DNA of 64,000 nucleotides from Candidatus Hydrogenedentota bacterium (GTDB lineage Bacteria; Hydrogenedentota; Hydrogenedentia; Hydrogenedentales; JAEUWI01). Below the pieces are notes generated by a model. The model saw only the letters and a list, made by a program, of their open reading frames with translations, was not told where the DNA came from and did no database searches. Positions within the stretch are counted from its first letter, which is position 1; each line of letters opens with the position of its first letter. The translations under genes and the position numbers were made by a program. Positions 50,952 through 63,400 of the stretch are shown here, in pieces. The stretch lies in assembly GCA_016182605.1 (NCBI GenBank), contig JACPGE010000016.1, positions 95,774 through 159,773 on the forward strand, in the 5' to 3' direction.

Positions 50952-52046
50952 GTGAAGAAGCACGCACAAACCCTGGCAGGCGCCGCCTTTGGCATTGCCC
51001 TCCTGATTTTTTTGTTCAAGGACACGGATTGGAGAGAGGTGGGGCACGCGCTCCGTTCGGTGCATTGGGGGTGGCTGGTGACTTCGTTGCTCCTTGTGCT
51101 AGTCACCTTTTTCACCCGGGTGCAGCGCTGGTCGTACATCGTGCGCACGGCGAAACCGGTGAGTTTCCGGGCGCTGTTCAGTGCCACCCAAATCGGATTT
51201 CTCGGCAACTTTGTCCTGCCGGGACGTATTGGCGAAATCATCCGGGCGGTTGTCTTGAGCCATCTCGCGGGGCTCCCCTTCACGCGGTGTTTTGCGTTCG
51301 TTGCCCTGGACCGGGTCACCGATCTCTTCGGCCTGATCGCCGTCATGGGGGTTGCCCTGATTTTTTTCCGCCCGGAAGCGGATATTCCTCTGCCGCCGGA
51401 TATTCTTGATGTTGTGATCCCTGCCGACATCATCCAGGTCGCGACGCTTTGGACCATGGTCTTCGTCGCCATAATTCTTGCCGGACTTGGGCTGCTCTAT
51501 TTTTTTCAGGACCGGTTCGTCGGGATCATGCACTATGTGTTGCGGCCTTTGGGGCGCAAGATAAGCGACAAGATCGAGCATTTCATGCGCACGTTCGCGC
51601 TGGGTCTCCATGTGTTTCGTTCTGTGGGCGATATGGCCCGGGCCGTCGGTTACTCCCTTCTCACCTGGGCGGTTGGCGTGCTCTGTTACCATGCCGTGCT
51701 GGAGGCCTTTGGACTGGCGGCCCACTGGTACACGTCGGTGCTGGTAATGGTCTTTCTGGCTGTCGCGGTCAGCATCCCAGGAGCGCCGGGCTTTGTGGGG
51801 CAGTTTCACCTCGCCGTGGTCGCTGCCGTCTTGATTTCCGATCCCGGCGCCGACACGAATGTGGCCCGGGCCGCGGCGCTGATGGCGCATCTCGTTAACC
51901 TGGTGCCGGTTGCCCTGGTAGGCGTGTACTGCCTGTACACCGAAAAGCTTGGACTGCTCGCGCTGCGGCGGGAGAGTGCCGTGCTGGAGGAGCAGGCGCC
52001 GGAGATGGAAACACCCGGAGACGGGATATCTCCGGGTGATCGCTAG
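50952..52046 (+). CDS. Flippase-like membrane protein (LPG synthase TM / UPF0104 family)
   Basis: A 364-residue polytopic membrane protein with about eight helices. The family segment RVQRWSYIVRTAKPVSFRALF followed by GFLGNFVLPGRIGEIIRAVVL is the lysylphosphatidylglycerol-synthase transmembrane (AglD2-like) signature. A late SIPGAPGFVGQFHLA motif also fits. GTG 50952, with GGAG 11 nt upstream, is preferred over an ATG 24 codons earlier. No catalytic transferase domain is present, so it is a flippase-like protein of unknown lipid substrate. Confidence 0.82.
   Translation: MKKHAQTLAGAAFGIALLIFLFKDTDWREVGHALRSVHWGWLVTSLLLVLVTFFTRVQRWSYIVRTAKPVSFRALFSATQIGFLGNFVLPGRIGEIIRAVVLSHLAGLPFTRCFAFVALDRVTDLFGLIAVMGVALIFFRPEADIPLPPDILDVVIPADIIQVATLWTMVFVAIILAGLGLLYFFQDRFVGIMHYVLRPLGRKISDKIEHFMRTFALGLHVFRSVGDMARAVGYSLLTWAVGVLCYHAVLEAFGLAAHWYTSVLVMVFLAVAVSIPGAPGFVGQFHLAVVAAVLISDPGADTNVARAAALMAHLVNLVPVALVGVYCLYTEKLGLLALRRESAVLEEQAPEMETPGDGISPGDR
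52009..52038 (-). terminator. Probable terminator for the EF-hand gene
   Basis: Read on the minus strand, a perfect 10-bp stem CACCCGGAGA/TCTCCGGGTG with a 7-nt loop is followed by TTTCC. It lies 43 bp past the EF-hand gene stop and inside the last codons of the convergent flippase gene. The T-run is short. Confidence 0.45.
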
Positions 52047-52081
52047 CTAAAGTCTGGGGGGGAGGCGCGTAGCGCGCTGCT

Positions 52082-53155
52082 TCAGTTGGCGGGCGGCGTT
52101 TCTTTCGCAGGCGCCGCCTTTTTCTCGGCTTTCTTTTCTACCTTCTTCTCCACCTTTTTCTCCACGATCTTTTCAGCGTCTTCACCCGCAGCCGGCTTTT
52201 TCTTGGCTCCGGTTTTCTTGGTGTCTTTCTGCCCCAAGTTCATGGCGGCAATGTCTTTCTTCGTGATCTGGCCGTCTTTATCCTTGTCGAGCTGATCGAA
52301 AGCTTCTTTGGGGTATCCCTTCTGTTCCGTGCTCAACTCTTCAAAGCTCAACTGGCCATCCTTATTGGTGTCGTTCTTTTCGATCCAACTCACGAACGAG
52401 GCCGCGACGTCGACGTTACCCTCGATCTTGGCCTTTCGCTGCGGTGTTGCCTTGGCCTCGGTAGCTGGCTTGGACATCTCCTGCTTGGAGATGACGCCAT
52501 TCTTGTCGGTGTCCAGTGCGGCGAAGTGATCCGCAGCGGGCTTCGGAAAGGCCTTGTTGTATTCTTCACCGCTCAACTCGCCGTTGCCGTCCAGATCGGC
52601 TGCGAGGAGCGCTTCCCGTTCCGCGGCGCCCTCGTCGGCTTTCGGCTGGCCCTTCGCTTTGTCCCGCCCACCTGGCAACGCAATCTTGAGCTTGGTTCCG
52701 CCCATGGTATCGTCGTTCACCAGTTCTGACTGGGTGATTTCACCATTCTTGTTCTTGTCCAGGGAGGAGAAACGCGCTTCCGGGAAGTTGGGCAAGGTGG
52801 CGTGAATCTCATCCAGGGTGAGTGAATTGCTCTTATCCACATCCAGCTTCGGGAAGAGCGCCTGGAGGCCCTTTTTTTTTGCAGGGGTTTTCCCGGCCTC
52901 TGCCGGGGCCGCTTCCGGAGTCTCTTCCGGTGTTGCTTCTGTATCTGCTGCTTTTGCAGTTTCCTTGGCGGCCTTCTTGGGTGCGGCCTGGGGTGCTGCT
53001 TTATCGGTTTCTTTTACAGTCTCCTGGGGGGCGGCGGTTGTGGATTCCTTCTTGGCCTTTGGGGAGGCGGGCCTGGGGGCTTCCTGGGCGGCAGCCGCGA
53101 GGTGCAGCCCGGCAAAGAGGGCCGACAGTACGAAATACCGGTATAGCTTCTTCAT
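52082..53155 (-). CDS. Exported protein with six EF-hand motifs and Lys/Ala-rich tails
   Basis: A 357-residue protein with a signal peptide (residues 1-23, ending AAAAQE). Residues 24-95 are a Lys/Ala/Pro/Glu-rich linker. Six EF-hand-type Ca2+ loops follow: LDVDKSNSLT, LDKNKNGEIT, ADLDGNGELS, LDTDKNGVIS, NDTNKDGQLS and LDKDKDGQIT, arranged as three pairs. The C-terminus is a histone-H1-like KKVEKKVEKKAEKKAA tract. It should bind calcium outside the cytoplasm. No partner gene is evident. Confidence 0.85.
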   Translation of the reverse strand: MKKLYRYFVLSALFAGLHLAAAAQEAPRPASPKAKKESTTAAPQETVKETDKAAPQAAPKKAAKETAKAADTEATPEETPEAAPAEAGKTPAKKKGLQALFPKLDVDKSNSLTLDEIHATLPNFPEARFSSLDKNKNGEITQSELVNDDTMGGTKLKIALPGGRDKAKGQPKADEGAAEREALLAADLDGNGELSGEEYNKAFPKPAADHFAALDTDKNGVISKQEMSKPATEAKATPQRKAKIEGNVDVAASFVSWIEKNDTNKDGQLSFEELSTEQKGYPKEAFDQLDKDKDGQITKKDIAAMNLGQKDTKKTGAKKKPAAGEDAEKIVEKKVEKKVEKKAEKKAAPAKETPPAN

Positions 53156-53174
53156 GATTCGCTCTCCATTCTAA

Positions 53175-53186
53175 GCGCAATTGCGC
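53175..53186. promoter_or_regulatory. 12-bp palindrome upstream of EF-hand gene
   Basis: GCGCAATTGCGC is a perfect palindrome 20 bp upstream of the EF-hand ATG, between it and the divergent kinase-like gene. It could be an operator; no regulator is known. Confidence 0.35.
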
Positions 53187-53327
53187 GTGTTACTTCACAA
53201 CGTATGAACCCGGACAATGGTTACAGGGTTCCTTAACTCCAGGTGATAAATTTGGTTTGCAGACGGGCGGTGGGTACAATGCGGCCTTTACGATGGGCCG
53301 ATGCAGCCGCCTCTCCGCGAGACCGCC

Positions 53328-54596
53328 ATGAACTCAAATCATATCACACAGACCTTCTCCAAGTTATTCCCTGCCGCGGGTGCGCCGTTCACGGGGGCCC
53401 TGCCCTCTTCCGGGGCGCTCTTCGGCGATTTGCTGGAGTACGCGAATCTTCCCCAGTGGCTTGTGGCGCTGCCCTGGGACACCCAGTTTGCCTTTTGCGC
53501 CCATCCGGGTGCGAAGGTGGTTCTGCGGGCGGGCGCGGACTGGGACGAGACGGTGCTGCGTGCCGCATCTGGCGGCTGGTCCCCGGAAAGCGGGGTCGAG
53601 CCTGTGGCTTCGTACTGGGCGTTTTTGCTCGATGAGTTGGAATCGCAGTGGCCGCCGGAGCAACGGCGGGGCTTCGACGGCTTGGTGCACTTTCCCGCGG
53701 AAGACGCCGCGACCTCTTGGCCGATCCAATCCCTGGCGCTGGTGCTGTCTGCCCTTTCCGTGGCGGGCATCGGTGTGGACACCGACATCTCCCGCCGGAA
53801 GCTGCTTCAGGTCATCGAAGATCTCGGTGTCGGCATGCCGTACTGGTCCCAGTCTCACGCGGCCTGTGCGCTCTTGAGCGAGGCATCGTGTCTGTTGCGT
53901 GCGGGCGGTCGATCCGATCAGATCGACATGCTGCCGATGCCGGAGGAGTGGACCATAGTGGCGGTGCCGGTCCGCATGACGCCAGTCCGCAAGCTGGGTC
54001 AGTTGAACGAGTGCGCGCGCTTCCTGGTGGAGCAGCAGGTGCGCGCCGAATTCGATCCGGAATTTGAACTCGAATCGATGGCGGACCTGTGGTACGGCGC
54101 TTTGTGCCTGCGCCACGGCGAGGTGCAGGAGGTCGTGCGGCAGGCGCTGGCGAAACCCCCGTTTTTTCAACGGCTGTTGAAGGCGCTCGACAACAACGCG
54201 CTGGGACTTCAGGAAGAAGGCGCGCGGCCTTTAGAGCATTTGTTGCACTATTACCTGAACACCTACCGCAACGTCGAACTCGCGGGGGATGCGCTTGTGG
54301 CCGGGGATCACGATGCGCTTCGCGGACTCTACGGCGAGAATCTTCAGCACCGCGCCACGCTCTTGGAGGGGTTGAATCTTGCGTGTCCGGTCAACACCGA
54401 GTTGTGGCGCAACCTTCCTGTGCTGGGCTTCTCGCTTTCTGGCTGCGGGGCGCAGCAGTGGCTCCTGGGACTCGTGGAGACGGGAGAAGAAGCCGAAGTC
54501 ATGCTGCACCTCGAGAAGAGCCTTACAGAACGGGGTGTGCTTGCCGGTGCCGGGCACGCGTTCCGCCCACACGCCGCCGGCGCCTATGGGCGGTGA
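53328..54596 (+). CDS. Degenerate galactokinase / GHMP-kinase-like protein
   Basis: A 422-residue protein whose layout follows galactokinases. Matching points are YWAFLLDELESQ then GFDGLVHFPAED, GQLNECARFLVEQQ (like YNERxxEC), and ALVAGDHDALRGLYGENLQHR then ACPVNTELWR (like the GELMxxSHxSL and CPELDxLV region). The N-terminal GEHTDY motif is absent and the phosphate loop GLSSSAAL reads ATSWPIQSLAL, so ATP binding is doubtful. It may be a pseudokinase or binding protein. It is followed by dgt after 44 nt. Confidence 0.5.
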   Translation: MNSNHITQTFSKLFPAAGAPFTGALPSSGALFGDLLEYANLPQWLVALPWDTQFAFCAHPGAKVVLRAGADWDETVLRAASGGWSPESGVEPVASYWAFLLDELESQWPPEQRRGFDGLVHFPAEDAATSWPIQSLALVLSALSVAGIGVDTDISRRKLLQVIEDLGVGMPYWSQSHAACALLSEASCLLRAGGRSDQIDMLPMPEEWTIVAVPVRMTPVRKLGQLNECARFLVEQQVRAEFDPEFELESMADLWYGALCLRHGEVQEVVRQALAKPPFFQRLLKALDNNALGLQEEGARPLEHLLHYYLNTYRNVELAGDALVAGDHDALRGLYGENLQHRATLLEGLNLACPVNTELWRNLPVLGFSLSGCGAQQWLLGLVETGEEAEVMLHLEKSLTERGVLAGAGHAFRPHAAGAYGR

Positions 54597-54640
54597 GCCG
54601 GCAAGACTTGCGCCGTGAAACCAGAGGAGCCGGGGCCAAC

Positions 54641-55669
54641 GTGGAAGGATTGATTCGACAGCAATTGGAAGCGCGGGAGCGGCGCATACTTGCGCCTTAT
54701 GCGGCGTTTTCGGGGGATTCCCGCGGGCGTGCGCAGGCCGAGACCGAGGATTCGCTCCGCACCTGTTTTCAACGCGACCGCGATCGCATCGTTCATTGCA
54801 AGGCCTTCCGGCGGCTGAAGCGGAAGACCCAGGTGTTTCTTGCGCCGCAGGGAGATCACTACCGCACCCGGCTTACCCACACGCTGGAGGTGACGCAGAT
54901 TGCGCGGACGGTGTCGCGCGCGCTGGGTCTGAATGAGGATCTTACGGAGGCGATCGGGCTCGGGCACGACCTGGGGCACACGCCGTTTGGTCATGCGGGC
55001 GAGGCGGTATTGAACGAGGTCTATGCGCCCGGTTTTTTCCATTTCGAGCAGAGTCTCCGTGTAGTCGATATCCTTGAAAGCCGCCATTCGGGGCCCGGGC
55101 TGAATCTCACGTGGGAAGTGCGCGACGGCATTTTGCACCATTCGCGGGGGAAGGCGGTGTTGCAGGGCGCGCAGGCGGCGGGTCCGAACACGCTGGAGGG
55201 CGCGGTGATGAGCGTGTGCGATGCGGTGGCGTACATCAACCACGATATCGACGATGCGATCCGCGCGGAGGTGATTACACTCCGCGATTTGCCGCAGGAT
55301 GCCCTGGAGGCGCTTGGCAAGACCTCTTCGGAACGCATCGACGCCATGGTGCACGGCATTGTCGAAGGCAGTGGCGCGGGCAAGATTGGCATCCGGCGGG
55401 AAGTGCTGGAGCCGATGAACGCATTGCGCGACTATCTCTATGCGGAGGTCTATCCGCATCCGGCGATCGATCGGGAAATTCAGAAGGCAAAGGGGATGCT
55501 GCGCGAACTGTACCACCACCTGATTGCGTCGCCCTCGCCCGAGATTTTGCAGGGACGCCAGGAAGATTCCATCGAGCGCCGCACGGTCGACTTTGTGGCC
55601 GGGATGACGGACGAGTACGCGCTTGAACTCTACCGCAGATTGCGTCTGCCCACCTCCATGCGATCCTGA
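54641..55669 (+). CDS. dgt: Deoxyguanosinetriphosphate triphosphohydrolase-like protein
   Basis: A 342-residue HD-domain dNTPase. The metal site is visible as RLTHTLEVTQIARTVSRAL (His) and GLGHDLGHTPFGHAGE (HD). The start RDRDRIVHCKAFRRLKRKTQVF is typical of dGTPase. GTG 54641 follows AGAGGAG by 11 nt; a TTG three codons on is an alternative, and a long upstream extension is a shadow of the kinase-like gene. It is coupled to the purine nucleoside phosphorylase gene, fitting purine nucleotide turnover. Confidence 0.92.
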   Translation: MEGLIRQQLEARERRILAPYAAFSGDSRGRAQAETEDSLRTCFQRDRDRIVHCKAFRRLKRKTQVFLAPQGDHYRTRLTHTLEVTQIARTVSRALGLNEDLTEAIGLGHDLGHTPFGHAGEAVLNEVYAPGFFHFEQSLRVVDILESRHSGPGLNLTWEVRDGILHHSRGKAVLQGAQAAGPNTLEGAVMSVCDAVAYINHDIDDAIRAEVITLRDLPQDALEALGKTSSERIDAMVHGIVEGSGAGKIGIRREVLEPMNALRDYLYAEVYPHPAIDREIQKAKGMLRELYHHLIASPSPEILQGRQEDSIERRTVDFVAGMTDEYALELYRRLRLPTSMRS

Positions 55670-56367
55670 TGGAGGCGCGCGTCGCGATTGTAGCCGGATC
55701 GGGGCTGGATTTCGCGTCCCTGTTTGACGAGGTCTTTGCGATTCACAAATTCGAGACCTTTCCCGGCCTCCAGGCGGGTCATGTGCAGGGGCATAACTAC
55801 CGCTTCGTCTTTGGCGCCGCCGCGGGCGTGCCGCTCGTGCTACAGGAAGGACGCCTGCATCCTTATGAAGGCCTGCGTCTGGAAGCGGCCACGGCCACGA
55901 TTCCGTTGCTGGCCTCCTGGGGCGTGCGCACTATCCTGTTCACCAATGCGGTTGGGGGACTGCGGGCGGCGTTGCGTCCGGGTGCGCTGGTGGCGGCCCG
56001 GAGCGTGCACACCTGGCCATTTGCGCGCTATGCGCTCCAGGAGTCGTTGCGTCCCAACTTCGTCCTGCCTGGGTGCGATGCCGAAGGGGGCTATTGGTGG
56101 ATGCACGGGCCCTGCTACGAGACCGATGCCGAGATTCGCGCGCTACAATCCTTGGGGGGAAGCACGGTGGGGATGAGTTCCGCGCCCGAGATGCAGGTCG
56201 CGCAGGCGCTGGGCCTGCGCGCCGGGATCGTATCGTGCGTGACCAATTCGTGTGTCGACAAGAGCGTGCTCACCCATGCGCACGTGCTGGAGACGGCACG
56301 GCGTTCCTCCGAACGATTGCGGCTGCTGCTTGGGGCACAGATGGATTTTCTCGCGGCGCAGGGCTGA
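55669..56367 (+). CDS. Purine nucleoside phosphorylase
   Basis: A 232-residue family-2 nucleoside phosphorylase. Motifs are AIVAGSGLDFA, LVLQEGRLHPYEG, ILFTNAVGGLRAALRPG, HGPCYETDAEIRALQSLGGSTVGMSSAPEMQVAQALG and SCVTNSC. The ATG overlaps the dgt stop by one base (TGATG). It cleaves purine (deoxy)nucleosides to base and sugar-1-phosphate, downstream of dGTPase. It is about 40 residues shorter than common PNPs, mainly in the early loops. Confidence 0.9.
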   Translation: MEARVAIVAGSGLDFASLFDEVFAIHKFETFPGLQAGHVQGHNYRFVFGAAAGVPLVLQEGRLHPYEGLRLEAATATIPLLASWGVRTILFTNAVGGLRAALRPGALVAARSVHTWPFARYALQESLRPNFVLPGCDAEGGYWWMHGPCYETDAEIRALQSLGGSTVGMSSAPEMQVAQALGLRAGIVSCVTNSCVDKSVLTHAHVLETARRSSERLRLLLGAQMDFLAAQG

Positions 56368-56654
56368 GGGCGGCGAAACAGCCGGAATCTGCCCTTGTGG
56401 AGGTTTATGACACTGGGGGGGATTCTGACGTGTACCTCCGTGTATATCAGCGGCGGGCCGGTTGCGAAAAGGGGGGGCATGCGGGCGGGACACCGGGTGG
56501 TGGGGTGGAGATTGCGGTCTTTGAGAGGGCGTTGACGACGCGGAGCGTCGGGGACGGCATTTCCAATGCAGAGCTTGGAAACGAATCGGATGTTGTCAAA
56601 AAAATGGAAAGGCTTGCCTTCTACGACGTATCATGGCAATGAAGGAATGAAACA
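56368..56654. other. 287-bp gap before the ATPase-TOPRIM cassette
   Basis: The gap holds no credible gene. It has a 6-bp hairpin CGACGC/GCGTCG near 56535-56549 and an inverted repeat TTCCAA/TTGGAA near 56551-56570, like common short palindromic intergenic repeats. Base composition shifts to lower GC from about 56570 on. Confidence 0.45.
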
Positions 56655-57779
56655 ATGGAACCGAAAATAGGCAGTCTCTCGATCAAGCGATTTAGAGCCC
56701 TCCGAGAGATCAACATCTCTCCCCTTGGCAGAGTGAATCTAATTACAGGGCGTAACAATGCCGGAAAATCATCCATCTTGGAAGCTCTTCGCCTCTTGGC
56801 TTCAAACGCATCACCGGCTGTAATCTTTGACATACTCCGTTATCGGGAAGAAGCTGAAGACATTTCTGCAGAATCTAGTAGGCGTTTTGACCTGGAAGGC
56901 GCATTCCCAATTTCTAGTCTTTTCCATGGATTCCCAGAGCTTTCCAAAAAACTTGAACCTGTGGAGATTAAATCGAATGGAAGCCAACGTCCAATGGAAT
57001 TGTCCTTCGAAATCGGCTGGTTTCCAGAAGTACGAACTCCGGAAGGAACTAGCCGGCTAGACACACAGGCTACACTTTTTGACGAAGAAGACGCGGTAGC
57101 CGCACTTAAGATCAGTTCAGGAGGAGACTCACGCGTTGTTCGACTTGATTCTTACGGGCGTAACGCATACCGTGCCCGCCCGTTTCGAATGGAGTCTTCG
57201 GATGAATCACGCCTGAACTGCATATTTGTAAGCGCCTACGGAGGCGAACGAACGGGCACTCTCGGTAGTATGTGGGATAAGATTGCCCTTTCAGATCACG
57301 AGGAGCATGTGGTTGATGCGTTGCGGATTATCGATCCGAACATATCTGCTATCTCTATGGTTGGAGGTGAAAGTCCAGGAAGATCTCGAACCGCAATCGT
57401 TAAGTCACAAGCGCTTGCGCGACCTGTACCCCTTCGTTCCTTTGGCGATGGCCTGAACCGCCTTTTTGGAATCGTCTTATCGCTCGTAAATGCCAAAGAT
57501 GGGTTGCTACTTATCGATGAGTTCGAAAATGGTATGCATTTCTCCATACAGACGGACACTTGGAGGACCATCTTCAAACTTGCCAATCGCCTCAATGTTC
57601 AAGTAATGGCGACTTCACACAGCTGGGATGCAATTGAATCGTTTCAGAGAGCAGCAAGTGAATCCCCAGAAGACGGAGTCTTGATTCGATTGTCGCGCAA
57701 GGGTGATGACATCATTCCGACAATTTTCCGCGAAGACGAATTGACCATTGCGACTCGCGAGCGCATCGAGGTCCGTTAA
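56655..57779 (+). CDS. AAA15/OLD-like ATPase (ATPase-TOPRIM cassette)
   Basis: A 374-residue ABC/SMC-type ATPase. It opens SLSIKRFRALREINISPLGRVNLITGRNNAGKSS, with Walker A at residues 32-40. The signature-like SFGDGLNRLFGIV is near 262, Walker B LLLIDEFENGMH near 285, and the switch His ATSHSWD near 320. This is the layout of OLD-family and AAA15 ATPases. AAGGAA precedes the ATG. It is clearly more AT-rich than its flanks, and the next gene (2-nt gap) is a TOPRIM-like DUF3226 gene. Such pairs act in phage defence in known systems such as PARIS and two-gene OLD systems. Confidence 0.87.
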   Translation: MEPKIGSLSIKRFRALREINISPLGRVNLITGRNNAGKSSILEALRLLASNASPAVIFDILRYREEAEDISAESSRRFDLEGAFPISSLFHGFPELSKKLEPVEIKSNGSQRPMELSFEIGWFPEVRTPEGTSRLDTQATLFDEEDAVAALKISSGGDSRVVRLDSYGRNAYRARPFRMESSDESRLNCIFVSAYGGERTGTLGSMWDKIALSDHEEHVVDALRIIDPNISAISMVGGESPGRSRTAIVKSQALARPVPLRSFGDGLNRLFGIVLSLVNAKDGLLLIDEFENGMHFSIQTDTWRTIFKLANRLNVQVMATSHSWDAIESFQRAASESPEDGVLIRLSRKGDDIIPTIFREDELTIATRERIEVR

Positions 57780-57781
57780 AA

Positions 57782-58407
57782 ATGGCGGGGAAACGGATAC
57801 TGCTTGTTGAGGGCAACGATGACGAGCACGTCATAAAACACATTTGTGATCTAATCAGGTGCCACGTCCGGATGACGTGGGTGGACGCAGTGGCGTTGAA
57901 CATCTGCTTAAGATGCTTCCAGTCAGGCTTAAATCGTGTGAAGATGGCGACATAATGGGTGTTGTCGTCGACGCCGATGCTGATCTTGCCGCAAGGTGGC
58001 GGTCGATTCACGCCATATTGATTCAGGCGGGGTATCAAGGCGTTCAAAACGTTCCCCAAACAAACGGTACGATTCTCCCGGCTCCAAAGGGCACACTTCT
58101 TCCTAAACTTGGGGTTTGGATCATGCCAGACAATCAAGTCAACGGGATTCTGGAAGATTTTTTGCGGTTTCTTGTACCCTCGAATTCGGAACTCTTTCGA
58201 TATGTTGAGAATTGTGTAGACAGGATACCTTCGGAGCAACAGTTCTTCAAAATTGCTGATAAGCCTAAAGCAATAATTCACACATGGCTAGCTTGGCAAG
58301 AAGTTCCTGGAATACCCTTTGGCTTCGCAATTACGAAGAAGTTTCTTGATCCTCGCGTGCCGGAGGCGCGCACGCTGGCCGCGTGGTTGAAAGCTCTCTA
58401 CCTTTAG
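57782..58407 (+). pseudogene. DUF3226 (TOPRIM-like) protein with -1 frameshift
   Basis: The ATG at 57782 begins KRILLVEGNDDEHVIKHICDLI, the TOPRIM-type LVEGxxD start of DUF3226. The rest (VGGRSGVEHLL, VVVDADADLAARW with the DxD pair, VWIMPDNQVNGILEDFL, KAIIHTWLAWQEVPG) lies in the -1 frame, from 57859 at the earliest. A stop in that frame at 57847-57849 confines the shift to about 57850-57885. A perfect 7-bp hairpin (57862-57880) sits right there. No standard slippery heptamer is visible. It may be a real one-base deletion, a sequencing error in a hairpin, or recoding. Read through, the product would be about 208 residues. Confidence 0.8.
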
Positions 58408-58441
58408 ACCAATAAACATTTTCCGATTGCGACCAGTAGGG

Positions 58442-60325
58442 TTATGGAATCCGGTAGAGCACCATCTCCCCCACGTCCGCACTCACGGGCAAGTGCAGCG
58501 GCACGCCGGCCGGGCTCAGGACATGGTCTGCGCCATAGCGCCGGGCAATGATTCCCCACTCCGCGGCGCTGCGCGCCCTCCAAATCGCCTCCCAGGGCAG
58601 GGGCTGCTCCGGCCGGTCAAATCGCACGCCATAGATGTCCTCGTAGATCCGTTGTGTGACGGGCGCGAGGGCGGGCAGGTAAGACATGTACGAACTTGTC
58701 GCCGCGTCGACAAGGATGGGATGGTTCAGCCGGGCCTGGAGGGCGTAGGTGGCGTCTGGGGCGATGAGGGGCGCATCGGGCCGGGACGCCGCCGCAAGCG
58801 TTGCCGCCACGGGCGCATCCCACGCCTGGCCGCGCAGGTGCTGGCGATACTGCCCCTGGGTCCAGAGGGTGCCGATCAACGCGAGGGCCACGGCGCCGGC
58901 CAATAGCGGATGCTGTCTGTCCGTGTTCCGGATGCCGCGGAAGATGCCCTTGGGACGAATGGCGGCGTAGCCCAGCCCGATCAGGATACAACCCGTGCCG
59001 AATTGATGGAGACTGCCGAAGCCCACGAAGATGACCGCGAGCACGGCGGCGCGCAGGCCAGTTCTGGGCTGCTGCATCAGCACGGTGAAGAGCGCCGCGC
59101 CCAGCATCACAAACACAAAACCATCCAAACGTTCTACGTAACGTTGATAGGCCGTCTCCGGCATCCAGGGCGCCCACCAGGGCCGGGTAAGCAAGAGGGC
59201 GAGTGATGCGGCGAGCAGGAACCGGCCGCGGCCATCGCGCCACAGCACGGCGCCGATTACGCACAGCAGGAGCAGCGGCGCGTGATTGATGATTCGGTAA
59301 GGAATCCAAACCAGGAGTATCTGCGGTATGTCCGCGTTCATGAAGTAGTGGCAAAGGGCGATGGGCCACACGAGTGCGGCGAGGATGCCGGTATAGGTAA
59401 GGATGCCCTCGAAGATGCGTTTGTTGCGGCCCGGCGCTTCTCCGTACCACGCGAGCGCGGTGAGCAGCAACGTGGCGGCCATGCACAGGTGCCCGTTCGC
59501 CGTGGGCAAGCGCCGGTGCGGATCGGACCAGGCCACAAAACCGCGCACGATGGCCTCGGCATTTCCGCCCTCCGCATAGCCGCCCTCCGCCGGTGCGGGC
59601 AGGTGCGTCTGCCGCAACACCAACAAGAGGAGTAGCGAAGGCAGCGCGCCGAGTACCACGCCGGAAAGCACCTGACGCAGCACGCCCGCATCGCGACGAT
59701 AGAGCGCGCGCAGACCATGATATAAGGCGATGATCGCAAGCGCGGGCGTCTGGCCGGCATGCACAAACGGTGCGAACACAATGGCCGCGCCGGACCAGAA
59801 CCAGGGCGCGCACAACAGCAAGAACAATGCGAAGATCATATAACCGCCACCCACATGGCCATTGCTGTAGAGCCAAGGCCACAGGGAGAGGGGGTAGCTA
59901 CCGTCGAACTCGGCGAGGATATCGTAGAGCGCGAGGGTGCAGACCACACTTCCGGCGAGGACGGAGCGGCTTAAGACACTTACAAAGCAGTAGATGGGCG
60001 CCACAGAGGCGGCAAGATAGAGGACGTTGCGAAATCCGTTCAACAGAATGGGCCCACCACCGGCCCATTGGAGAAGGGCCAGCAGATAGGTTTGCCCGCT
60101 GAAAATACGGTGAACGTATTGGGAGAGCGGATGGCCCGGCGGGTAATCGACCGCGCCCGTGAGCACTTGCGCGAACTCGAAGTTTTCGTCCCAGCGCACG
60201 CCGCGCACGCTTACGGCAAGGGCAGAAAAGGCCAACCAGAACAGCAGGCCCGGCCAAAAGCCCCTGGGCAAGGCGCTCCCCGGCTCCACGGACTCTCCAG
60301 CAATTTCTGTCTCGGATCGTGCCAT
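58442..60325 (-). CDS. Polytopic membrane protein of unknown function
   Basis: A 627-residue protein with about 12 hydrophobic helices, the first near residues 20-40 and a cluster through about 500, then a soluble C-terminal part (about 510-627). It resembles GT-C type or related sugar-processing membrane proteins in topology (early DENFEF acidic loop after helix 1), but I cannot name a family. The ATG at 60325 is preferred over one 22 codons upstream because GGAAAA precedes it. It lies downstream of the GH2-like gene on the same strand and may be co-transcribed. Confidence 0.7.
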   Translation of the reverse strand: MARSETEIAGESVEPGSALPRGFWPGLLFWLAFSALAVSVRGVRWDENFEFAQVLTGAVDYPPGHPLSQYVHRIFSGQTYLLALLQWAGGGPILLNGFRNVLYLAASVAPIYCFVSVLSRSVLAGSVVCTLALYDILAEFDGSYPLSLWPWLYSNGHVGGGYMIFALFLLLCAPWFWSGAAIVFAPFVHAGQTPALAIIALYHGLRALYRRDAGVLRQVLSGVVLGALPSLLLLLVLRQTHLPAPAEGGYAEGGNAEAIVRGFVAWSDPHRRLPTANGHLCMAATLLLTALAWYGEAPGRNKRIFEGILTYTGILAALVWPIALCHYFMNADIPQILLVWIPYRIINHAPLLLLCVIGAVLWRDGRGRFLLAASLALLLTRPWWAPWMPETAYQRYVERLDGFVFVMLGAALFTVLMQQPRTGLRAAVLAVIFVGFGSLHQFGTGCILIGLGYAAIRPKGIFRGIRNTDRQHPLLAGAVALALIGTLWTQGQYRQHLRGQAWDAPVAATLAAASRPDAPLIAPDATYALQARLNHPILVDAATSSYMSYLPALAPVTQRIYEDIYGVRFDRPEQPLPWEAIWRARSAAEWGIIARRYGADHVLSPAGVPLHLPVSADVGEMVLYRIP

Positions 60326-60483
60326 CGTTTTCCAACTTGCCCCGCGGTGTGGAAGCCCGCCATTAATGACCTGAAGCCGATATGACCGCATTGATCCGGG
60401 CCACGCCTACGGTGCCATACCGGCGGCGCCGAATCAAGAACTGCGGCCACCGCAGCGCTGCATCTACCGCAGAGAATCCTGAT

Positions 60484-63400
60484 CTAACGCCACCAGTTGC
60501 AGGAGAGGGGCAACCCCGACGCGTTCTCCAGACCGATCGTTGCTTCTGCAGGCCCAGCCACGGCACTGCACTTGATCAACACGGTGTTGCGGCCCTGACG
60601 CACCATGGCGTCCTCCGCGCAACGGTTCTCACCGCCACCGCGCAATTCGTCGAGTACGGCAGCGCCGTTGAGCCAGATCTTGAGGCTGCCGCAGAAATCG
60701 GCGCGCAGCCGGATCTTTTCACGGTGCTCGGCGCTGAACTCGGCGTAGGCGTACCACGAACCGCCCCCTGAACCGCCATTGGACGGGAAAGGCCCAGGGA
60801 TGGCCGCATTAAAATTGACCCTGTGTCCTTCTGCCGCGCTGCTGAACCAGGGCTGCCAGTAGACTGGACGGTACCACCCGGGATAGGTTGCGTTCAGATC
60901 GATCTCGCGCTCCGGGGGATACACTGCAGTGTGACCGGACTTTGCCGTATCGTGGGCAAACTCACCGATGACGAGCCATTTGCGCTTGTCGCCCACGAAG
61001 CTGCGGCGCATCCACTCGACAGGCTGTGTTTCCAGGGTGAGGGGCGCCGTCGGGGGAATGGAGCGCCGCGTGAAGTGGGCGACCAGATTAATGATCAGGT
61101 GCTGTGCAAGCGGATCGAAATCGAGCGACTCGAGCACGCGCAGGGTGCACACGATTATCCGGCCGCTGCCGTGGCGTCGCGAGGCGATGGGGGCGCCCCA
61201 GATGGAGTGCCGGCCTTCGGGACAGCCCGCGCCACGCTCCAGCCAGGATCCGCAGATGTCCTCGTCGCTGCCGCCGGCCGTGACGAGGTCGGGCTGCACA
61301 TAGCGGTAAGCAAAGCCCATGTGCGTCTTTGCGGGCAGGTGGTCGAAGACAGGATGGATCCGGTTGTAATGGTAGGCGGCGTCATAGTGCTTTACGGGCA
61401 GCAGATCCAGGGGCGGCTGCTCCGGCTGCAAGACGCGCATAAATGCTGCGAAATCCGCAGGGGGATTGAAGAATATAGCCACCGCACCGCCCTTGACCTG
61501 GGCAAGCATCTGGAGCAGTTCGTTGTCGGGATAAGCGGCCATAGTGTTGGCCAGCGGTGGAATGATGTGGACCGGCGCCAGGAAATTCTGCAACTTGAAG
61601 TATTTGCCCAGGGCCGCGGCATGGCGCCGTTCCGGATCGAGGAGATGTATCTCCTGCTCGGCAGGCTTCACTTCGTCGAGCACGGTGAAGTCCGCGCCGC
61701 TCTCGGCTATACGTTGAAAATTTTGCAGCACGCGCACGATAAAGCGGTGTTTCCCCGTGCTGCCCGATGCGGCGATCGTTCCGCTCCACAATTCCCGGCC
61801 GTGCTTGGGCAGCTTCACGCTGCGCTTCTTCTTCCACAAGACCTGGTTCGTGGGGCCGACCACCTGCAAGGACAATTCCACCCTGCCTTCGGCGCGCTCC
61901 AGGTTGGTCAGCAAGACCTGGACACTGGTCTCCTCGCGCACCATGAGATTGGTGCGCTGAATGACAATGATGGGCCGCATGGAGACCTGAAGCTCCTGCA
62001 ACGCGCGTTCCGCCACCCGCGCTTCACCGTTCACCGCACGCAGGCCATATCCCGCGTTCAGCCCGCTGTCGCGCCATTGCGCATAGCAGTATCCCGCCAG
62101 GGTGCGGTTGCCGCGGGCCGCCGCAAGGATCGAAACCACTCCGGCCGACTGCAAGGCTCGTGCGCCGCGCCGGAATGCCTCTGGGGTGTCGAATACCCGC
62201 TCCAGATGCTGTTCCGGAAAGGTCGCGTCGAAGTCCGTCTCTGCCGTGGCGCCGTCCTGAATGGATGCCTCTGCCATGCCGAACGAAGTGATGGAGGAAG
62301 CGAAATTGAGCAACTCCTCATCGCCCACGTGACGCAAGAACGACTCGTCCAATGGCGTGTGCGGTCCGAAGCCGCGATAGACGACATCCACATAGCTTTC
62401 GCCTTCGTCCCGGTAGGGCCGCACATAGGTGGCGTGCTCCCCCGTCAACGCGGACGTGCCCTGGCCCACGAAAATGAGCCTGCTCGGATCCAGGCTGCGC
62501 AGACCCGGGACGAGTGCGCGCACCCGGCGCAACGTCTCTCTGGGCTCCTGAGCGGAACAGGTGAGGGCGGCGCTGCCGAGGCTGAAGGCGGCCAGCGATG
62601 GATGATTGAGCAGGGGTTCCAGGAAGGATTGGAAGCGCGCCTTGAGTTCATCGTGGAAGGCCTGCGACTCCTTGGGGCGCTCCACAATCAATCCGCAGGA
62701 AATCAACATACCCACGCCGTCCGCGGCCTGGAGCAAATCCGCGCTGAGGGCGGCCTGATCGATCTGCACCCAGTTGAACCCCGCCGCCTTCATGGCCTGC
62801 AAGTCTTCGCGCAGAGATTCGGGCGTGGAGTCCGCCGGAGCATAGGCTACGCCATGAACGAAATAGGGCCGGCCATTGAGATGGAAGCGTTGATCCTTGA
62901 CCGAGAACTCCCGCATGCCAAAGGCGGCGCGCAGTTCTTCGCGATGGCCGGTGGCCGCGGTGAAAACCAGCACGAGTTGATACAACTGCGGTGTTTCCGG
63001 CGACCACGTCACGTACTTTTCAAAATCAAGACTGAAGGTTTCGTCGTCTCCCATGTAGGCCCCGGCCACGCCATCGATGTGTGCGTCCAGGCGCCCTTTT
63101 CCCCGGGTCTTCACGATGCACGCTATGCGGTTGCGGCGGATGTCGGGCTGAATGGATACGGAGACTATGGGGTGCGCTGGCTCCGCCGACAGCGACACGC
63201 CGCGCATGGCGGCGCCGGTGAGTGCCGTGGCCGGAAGCCGGCCCAGGCAGGGATCGCAGATCTCGCCCGCGTCTTCCAGCGGCGCGATTTCCACAGCGAG
63301 CAGGTTTGGTCCCGCGGCGAGGTGTTTGCCGGTATCGATGGAAGACGGGGAACAAACGCCCTGGCATGCGCCAAGCGCCTGGCCATTCAGCCAGAACGAG

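What the first reader, a model, noticed from the sequence alone, without database searches (positions are those of the whole stretch)
56655..58407. AT-richer AAA15 ATPase plus DUF3226 TOPRIM pair, candidate defence cassette
Two adjacent genes, an OLD/AAA15-type ATPase and a protein with the TOPRIM LVEGxxD start and a DxD pair, sit alone between housekeeping genes and differ in base composition. The arrangement parallels PARIS (AriA-AriB) and two-gene OLD systems, but DUF3226 is a different partner. This may be a little-studied defence type.
Basis: partly seen in the sequence, partly recalled or inferred. Interest (0 to 1): 0.75.

Follow-up and report, generated by a model that had tools for sequence, protein, structure and literature searches.

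The report
Broken ATPase–DUF3226 TOPRIM defence pair
Two neighbouring genes, an ATPase and a predicted nuclease whose reading frame is broken here, form a module found in many kinds of bacteria, on plasmids and inside candidate anti-virus operons; it likely lets an infected cell switch on a nuclease, but this copy would not work as it stands.

Summary
The pair is real. Window 56655-57779 encodes an intact 374-aa AAA_15/ABC-type ATPase. The DUF3226 gene behind it is split: an N piece (57782-57955) carries the TOPRIM LVEGxDD motif, and a C piece in another frame (57859-58407) carries the rest. The stretch is AT-richer than its flanks.

Both proteins match PADLOC's candidate PDC-M38, so the class is already catalogued. 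No paper in the searched library holds "DUF3226" or "PDC-M38".

The ATPase lies directly upstream in 75 of 77 testable loci, and in nine of nine places in the window's own phylum. It ends in IEVR, and those codons also look like the ribosome-binding site of the TOPRIM gene.

In eight of 74 loci the pair sits directly before HmaB. In the four of these eight with enough upstream DNA, HmaA lies upstream. The pair is patchy and also plasmid-borne.

Best reading: an ATPase-gated TOPRIM nuclease defence module that works like PARIS but is filed with neither PARIS nor AbiL. The copy here is likely inactive or mis-sequenced.

The parts
56655..57779 (+). ATPase gene, 374 aa, intact; AAA_15/AAA_21, PADLOC PDC-M38A; ends in IEVR
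   Evidence: in alignment A5 (55 rows) G32, N34, K38 (Walker A region), D288, E289 (Walker B) and H322 are invariant
57765..57776 (+). C-terminal IEVR codons (atcgaggtccgt); the TOPRIM start codon follows 2 nt after the stop; conserved tail and SD-like sequence
57782..57955 (+). N piece of the DUF3226 (TOPRIM) gene, LVEGNDDEHV motif; leaves the family frame after about 57847
57848..57862 (+). zone in which the reading frame of the DUF3226 gene changes
   Evidence: sequence set against the homologues aligned
57859..58407 (+). C piece of the DUF3226 (TOPRIM) gene: DADAD, WIMPDN...GILEDF and PKAIIHTWLAW motifs, 182 aa, open to the family's normal end
55669..56367 (+). left flank, purine-nucleoside-phosphorylase-like gene; HD phosphohydrolase-PNP order kept in 6 of 6 relatives examined, without the pair behind it
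58442..60391 (-). right flank, 649-aa protein, no family match over cut-off

Best explanation
The locus holds an intact ATPase gene and a frame-broken DUF3226 gene of a two-gene module whose ATPase likely holds a predicted TOPRIM nuclease in check until phage infection, when the nuclease would be freed to cut nucleic acid and stop the cell. Shown: the pair, its almost constant adjacency, the TOPRIM motif set, the IEVR tail and its SD-like codons, the Hma-embedded copies, and the broken frame here. Predicted: the TOPRIM fold and nuclease chemistry (model and conserved residues only). Inferred: the ATPase is sensor and clamp (by analogy with AriA), the flexible IEVR tail is the contact to the partner, and coupled translation keeps the nuclease from being made without its keeper. 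The copy in this window likely came by horizontal transfer and is most likely inactive, unless the frame break is a sequencing error.
Confidence: 0.64

Rival explanations
1. The pair is an addiction (toxin-antitoxin) module first of all: the ATPase neutralises a toxic TOPRIM nuclease and the unit is kept because losing it kills, with phage defence as a by-product.
For: Pairs on small plasmids of 4-13 kb; adjoining or overlapping genes with an SD-like sequence in the ATPase tail; the effector gene, with the ATPase still intact, is broken here and in G018, L036, L039 and L080.
Against: Embedding beside HmaA and HmaB is not expected of a pure addiction module. The ATPase can be the broken or lost part too: split in L081, a remnant in L037, absent in L068. 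Breaks are few and assembly errors cannot be excluded.
Confidence: 0.2
2. The pair serves DNA repair or cell-cycle control, like Rad50/SMC-type ATPases with a nuclease or like archaeal Cran1.
Confidence: 0.08
3. The frame break is a sequencing or assembly error and the window's module is intact and active.
For: The C piece runs open to the family's normal end and keeps the downstream motifs; the source is a draft assembly of 130 contigs.
Against: Other genomes also carry broken TOPRIM genes, at different positions, though these are mostly drafts as well; no second copy of this locus was found to compare (among the 120 rows shown the only 100% match is the window's own contig).
Confidence: 0.35

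Closest known systems
PDC-M38 (PADLOC-DB 2.0.0 candidate; PDCs come from the guilt-by-embedding preprint of Payne et al. 2024, seen only as cited in PMC12988326)
   Same: ATPase matches PDC-M38A at 4.7e-95, TOPRIM C piece matches PDC-M38B at 8.8e-44, 57 of 57 aligned members (window's C piece included) match PDC-M38B
   Different: Broken TOPRIM frame here; the PADLOC rows give no description of function
PARIS (AriA-AriB), OLD class 4
AbiL (AbiLi-AbiLii)
   Same: One AbiLi model matches the ATPase at 1.1e-63 over its whole length
   Different: None of 57 DUF3226 members matches AbiLii at 1e-3; AbiLii-like matches exist elsewhere in the same genome and phylum
OLD nucleases (class 1/2, P2 Old, Bp OLD, Ts OLD, GajA)
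   Different: Two proteins instead of one; class 2 GajA has a helicase partner (PMC12796447, passages), and the neighbours scanned here are not helicases
Hma-embedded candidates (HEC), e.g. HEC-01A/B
   Same: Another ATPase plus partner with a TOPRIM-like motif set; follows our pair directly in L008
   Different: Different partner family; an HEC-01B model hits only 1 of 57 DUF3226 members, at 8.6e-4

Membership tests
PDC-M38 | ATPase of the PDC-M38A models | tested here: met
   PDLC04611 4.7e-95 over residues 6-374
PDC-M38 | Adjacent PDC-M38B TOPRIM gene | tested here: met
   PDLC04624 8.8e-44, C piece; 57 of 57 in A2
PDC-M38 | Both genes intact | tested here: not met
   DUF3226 gene split over two frames in the window
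PARIS | AriA-type AAA_15 ATPase gene followed by a separate TOPRIM gene | tested here: met
PARIS | AriB-type (DUF4435) partner | tested here: not met
   Only PF11536 matches the C piece at E <= 1; no AriB model among the four families hit by the 57 members. Whether PADLOC-DB holds AriB models was not seen in a call; that AriB is DUF4435 is recalled
PARIS | AriA hexamer that sequesters the nuclease and releases it on an anti-restriction trigger; tRNA cleavage | not testable with these tools
AbiL | AbiLi-like ATPase | tested here: met
   PDLC02336 1.1e-63
AbiL | AbiLii partner | tested here: not met
   0 of 57 members match AbiLii at 1e-3; the AbiLii model PDLC02337 exists
OLD class 1/2 | ATPase and TOPRIM in one polypeptide | tested here: not met
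   Separate genes here and in 75 of 77 testable loci; L037 is a degraded join
TOPRIM nucleases | E-x3-D, DxD, third acidic residue and catalytic Lys on a TOPRIM fold | tested here: met
   the fold rests on a model of an intact homologue (L088), and the roles of E124 and K162 are inferred

The most novel reading that the evidence does not exclude
The pair is a second-line guard of helicase-methylase (Hma-type) immunity: built in between HmaA and HmaB, the ATPase would sense a phage block on that first line, as PARIS senses anti-restriction proteins, and let go of DUF3226. The conserved IEVR peptide at the very end of the ATPase would be the leash, written in codons that also serve as the ribosome-binding site of the nuclease gene, so that the nuclease is made only behind its keeper.
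Probability: 0.2. Interest if true: 0.7.

Novelty: new variant of a known kind. Interest (0 to 1): 0.45.

Why it matters
It gives an uncharacterised Pfam family, DUF3226 (1515 relatives at E <= 0.001), a concrete and testable role: the effector of an ATPase-gated TOPRIM system that is separate from PARIS and AbiL. Copies inside Hma operons offer a natural design to ask whether such modules guard a first line of defence. The dual-use IEVR tail names a four-residue peptide that can be tested as the toxin leash.

Tried and rejected
PDB sequence search with the C piece: nothing useful; with profile A2: AriB only at 0.28-0.29 over the N-terminal 46 positions. The best row of that list, an engineered repeat protein (4rzp, 6.8e-5), was judged spurious. 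A partner protein of HEC-01 type had no PDB match at E <= 1.

Programmed frameshifting was considered: the breaks in G000, G018, L036 and L039 lie at different places and L080 has a stop, so decay or error is likelier.

A mobile-element border was sought in and around the pair: no tRNA gene in 52000-62000, no direct repeats in 56300-58700, no Rfam match there at E <= 1, and promoter- and terminator-like sites no more frequent than in shuffles. The right flank is not conserved in the relatives examined, so no clean empty site could be shown; only the left side (HD phosphohydrolase-PNP, pair absent) is shown.

Natural ATPase-DUF3226 fusions were looked for in the ATPase protein search: no PF11536 in the Pfam column of the 120 rows shown of 1561. 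L037 turned out to be a degraded join. Phages: 0 of 50,697 records with one DUF3226 query (P0097) at E <= 1e-5. PHROGs: no family at E <= 0.01 for the four DUF3226 proteins tried.

Defence enrichment is only partly quantified. Neighbours of 19 pairs (112 proteins) hit 100 PADLOC families at 1e-15 against 32 for 112 proteins from elsewhere on the same contigs; the controls included BrxL, PDC-S01, PD-T4-2_B and methylase hits. These are family counts, not protein counts; one ATPase can hit 20 models; genes were mechanical ORFs of 100-1500 aa; the neighbour set was longer (51,342 against 40,487 residues before two proteins were dropped from each set of 114 to meet the size limit). Pfam scans of the two sets showed AAA_21, DUF1156 and SLFN_AlbA_2 among the neighbours, but also ordinary families. 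Hand-picked flanking proteins with hits: 4 of 10 (the four in L018; none of six in L019 and L020), 8 of 10 (at 1e-10), 2 of 10.

Full report
WHAT IS THERE. The ATPase gene is 56655-57779 on the + strand, 374 aa: AAA_15 2.5e-23, AAA_21 1.1e-21. Behind it lies DUF3226, but not as one open frame. The piece 57782-57955 begins MAGKRILLVEGNDDEHV and matches PF11536 positions 2-26 (5.4e-5, just under the curated cut-off). The piece 57859-58407, in another frame, matches positions 37-207 (2.6e-53). The frame changes between about 57848 and 57862; everything downstream is open to the family's usual end. Other genomes carry broken copies too: G018:C1 is split 2-46 / 42-207, L036 and L039 are split, and L080 has one stop. 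The positions differ, so a programmed shift is unlikely. Whether the window's break is biological or an assembly error cannot be told without reads.

COMPOSITION AND SITE. GC is 0.47-0.51 inside and 0.60-0.69 in the 2 kb on either side. Of 55 loci with enough flank, 50 have a pair lower in GC than their 6-kb flanks (mean -5.7 points, Wilcoxon p = 1.3e-8), so this is a habit of the module. The window's own genome has one DUF3226 place. The left neighbours (HD phosphohydrolase, then PNP) stand in the same order in 6 of 6 relatives examined, chosen because their PNP matched, and in none of these six regions does the pair follow. The right side is not conserved, so a clean empty site is not shown.

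TRANSFER. The window's ATPase is 68, 65 and 64% identical to copies from contigs titled Phycisphaerae, Deltaproteobacteria and Gammaproteobacteria (L004, L005, L063). Within its own phylum the best of the searched genomes is 62% (G022), and two same-family genomes have 37% (G006) and 32% (G004). In G001 and G006, both same-family, the HD phosphohydrolase is 73-74% identical. The phylum's name is not told; a protein-database relative at 67% is labelled Candidatus Hydrogenedentes, so near copies in kin cannot be excluded. In the phylum 8 of 68 genomes, 7 of 44 genera, have DUF3226. Plasmids: 9 of 72,556 records. Of the five looked at, four have the annotated ATPase directly upstream of the DUF3226 gene, and the 4,071-base circular record has both, with the DUF3226 match starting just past the start of the record. 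Phages: 0 of 50,697 records with one query. IMG/VR: 5 contigs, 5 with the pair.

PAIRING. Three are cut at the contig start. Of the other 77, 73 have the ATPase directly upstream by a strict rule, and two more (L036, L039) do once the broken TOPRIM frame is allowed for, making 75 of 77; in L081 that ATPase is itself split. The exceptions are L068 (no ATPase) and L037 (ATPase reduced to its first residues, joined to TOPRIM). In the phylum the ATPase profile gives nine places at 204-492 bits and then falls to 38 (in a few genomes only 29 of up to 41 candidates were scored). These nine are the direct neighbours of the nine DUF3226 places; one search lists ten rows because the G018:C1 gene is split. 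Across 76 pairs the two proteins' distances correlate at r = 0.82; the largest of 2000 permuted values is 0.20. Shared ancestry of the host explains part of such a correlation.

THE TAIL. In 68 ATPases from the loci (those of 340-412 aa and over 100 bits) the last four residues are IEVR in 52, VEVR in 8 and variants in 8, and the last residue is Arg in 68 of 68. In the 120 best database rows, the window's own included, it is IEVR in 114, with Arg last in 117. The window's ATPase also ends IEVR. The DNA of this tail runs into the TOPRIM start, often as TGATG or TAATG. Of the 61 genes with Glu-Val in the tail, 37 use GAG-GTG against 7.1 expected from the codon use of the same genes, so the stretch also looks like the Shine-Dalgarno site of the TOPRIM gene; the window's own codons are GAG-GTC. 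That is not the whole reason for its conservation: in the five Bacteroidota-type loci (L045, L067, L075, L077, L080) no GAGGTG is present, yet the terminal Arg stays (that this phylum relies little on such sites is recalled). In the ATPase model the last four residues are poorly ordered (mean pLDDT 56) while the whole averages 85. A flexible, nearly invariant tail fits a contact peptide. That it contacts DUF3226 is inference.

DEFENCE LINK. PADLOC-DB holds the pair as PDC-M38A/B, and 57 of 57 aligned DUF3226 proteins match PDC-M38B. [quoted passage not shown] HmaB lies directly behind the TOPRIM gene, on the same strand (first start codon 27 bases before to 125 after its end), in 8 of 74 loci with at least 900 bases of downstream DNA: L005, L018, L024, L026, L029, L030, L044, L056, titled Deltaproteobacteria, Thermoanaerobaculia, Pseudomonadota (including Rhodocyclaceae, Thiocapsa, Lamprocystis) and Anaerolineae. 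In L018 HmaA, ATPase, TOPRIM and HmaB follow each other with overlapping ends. HmaA is upstream in L018, L029, L044 and L056, with a 600-base gap in L029 and one or two further ORFs between in L044 and L056; the contigs of the other four begin less than 1 kb before the ATPase. HmaA and HmaB were confirmed by PADLOC models in L018, L029 and L056; L044, whose HmaA lies in two frames, and the other four rest on phmmer with the L018 proteins. Hma was named from helicase, methylase and ATPase as a candidate system (PMC8565338, passages). Other neighbours: PDC-S19 and an HmaB-like methylase in L028, HEC-01A/B in L008, a type IIG enzyme in L081. Many loci have none. The neighbour-versus-control comparison (100 against 32 PADLOC families, 112 proteins each) points the same way but is crude (see Tried and rejected).

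MECHANISM. In PARIS an AriA hexamer holds AriB, a phage anti-restriction protein sets it free, and the AriB dimer cuts tRNA-Lys (PMC11455837, whole text; PMC12409363, passages). The anatomy here is the same in kind: an ABC-type ATPase made first, then a small TOPRIM protein from an adjoining or overlapping start. I therefore take ATPase-gated release or activation of a TOPRIM nuclease as most likely. Target (tRNA or DNA) and trigger are open. It is not filed as PARIS (different partner family) or AbiL (no AbiLii).

NOVELTY. The class is catalogued as a candidate. 'DUF3226' and 'PDC-M38' each return 0 papers in the 5.39-million-paper library; the preprint itself is not held there, so it may already report some of this, the embedding included. 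What this work adds: DUF3226 read as a complete TOPRIM nuclease close to OLD, the near-exclusive pairing, the dual-use IEVR tail, the Hma-embedded copies, and the broken state of the window's copy.

Noticed in passing
window 56530-56584: Dispersed repeat with two hairpin-forming halves, 70 nt before the ATPase start; 10 further matches in the own genome and matches in same-family genomes G002, G004, G005, G006.
   Followed up: partly
L008 10706-12447: The DUF3226 pair is followed by a second ATPase plus partner pair, HEC-01A/HEC-01B, whose partner carries E-G-x-x-D and MEAWF motifs: tandem modules of two kinds. The neighbouring gene in L039 may be alike but was not scanned alone.
   Followed up: partly
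G000:C117:105252-105863 (own genome, outside the window): AbiLii-like match, one stop inside; AbiLii is in 21 of 68 genomes of the phylum.
   Followed up: no
L037 4903-6600: ATPase reduced to its first few dozen residues and joined to a TOPRIM gene whose end is also lost: a decayed copy.
   Followed up: partly
genomes G085, G078, G071: Seven, five and four DUF3226 matches in one genome (G078's five include one gene split in two), of very different similarity: several distinct modules side by side.
   Followed up: no
L108 (plasmid NZ_CP035939.1): The pair shares a 9.7-kb Acinetobacter plasmid with a predicted tet(39) gene.
   Followed up: no
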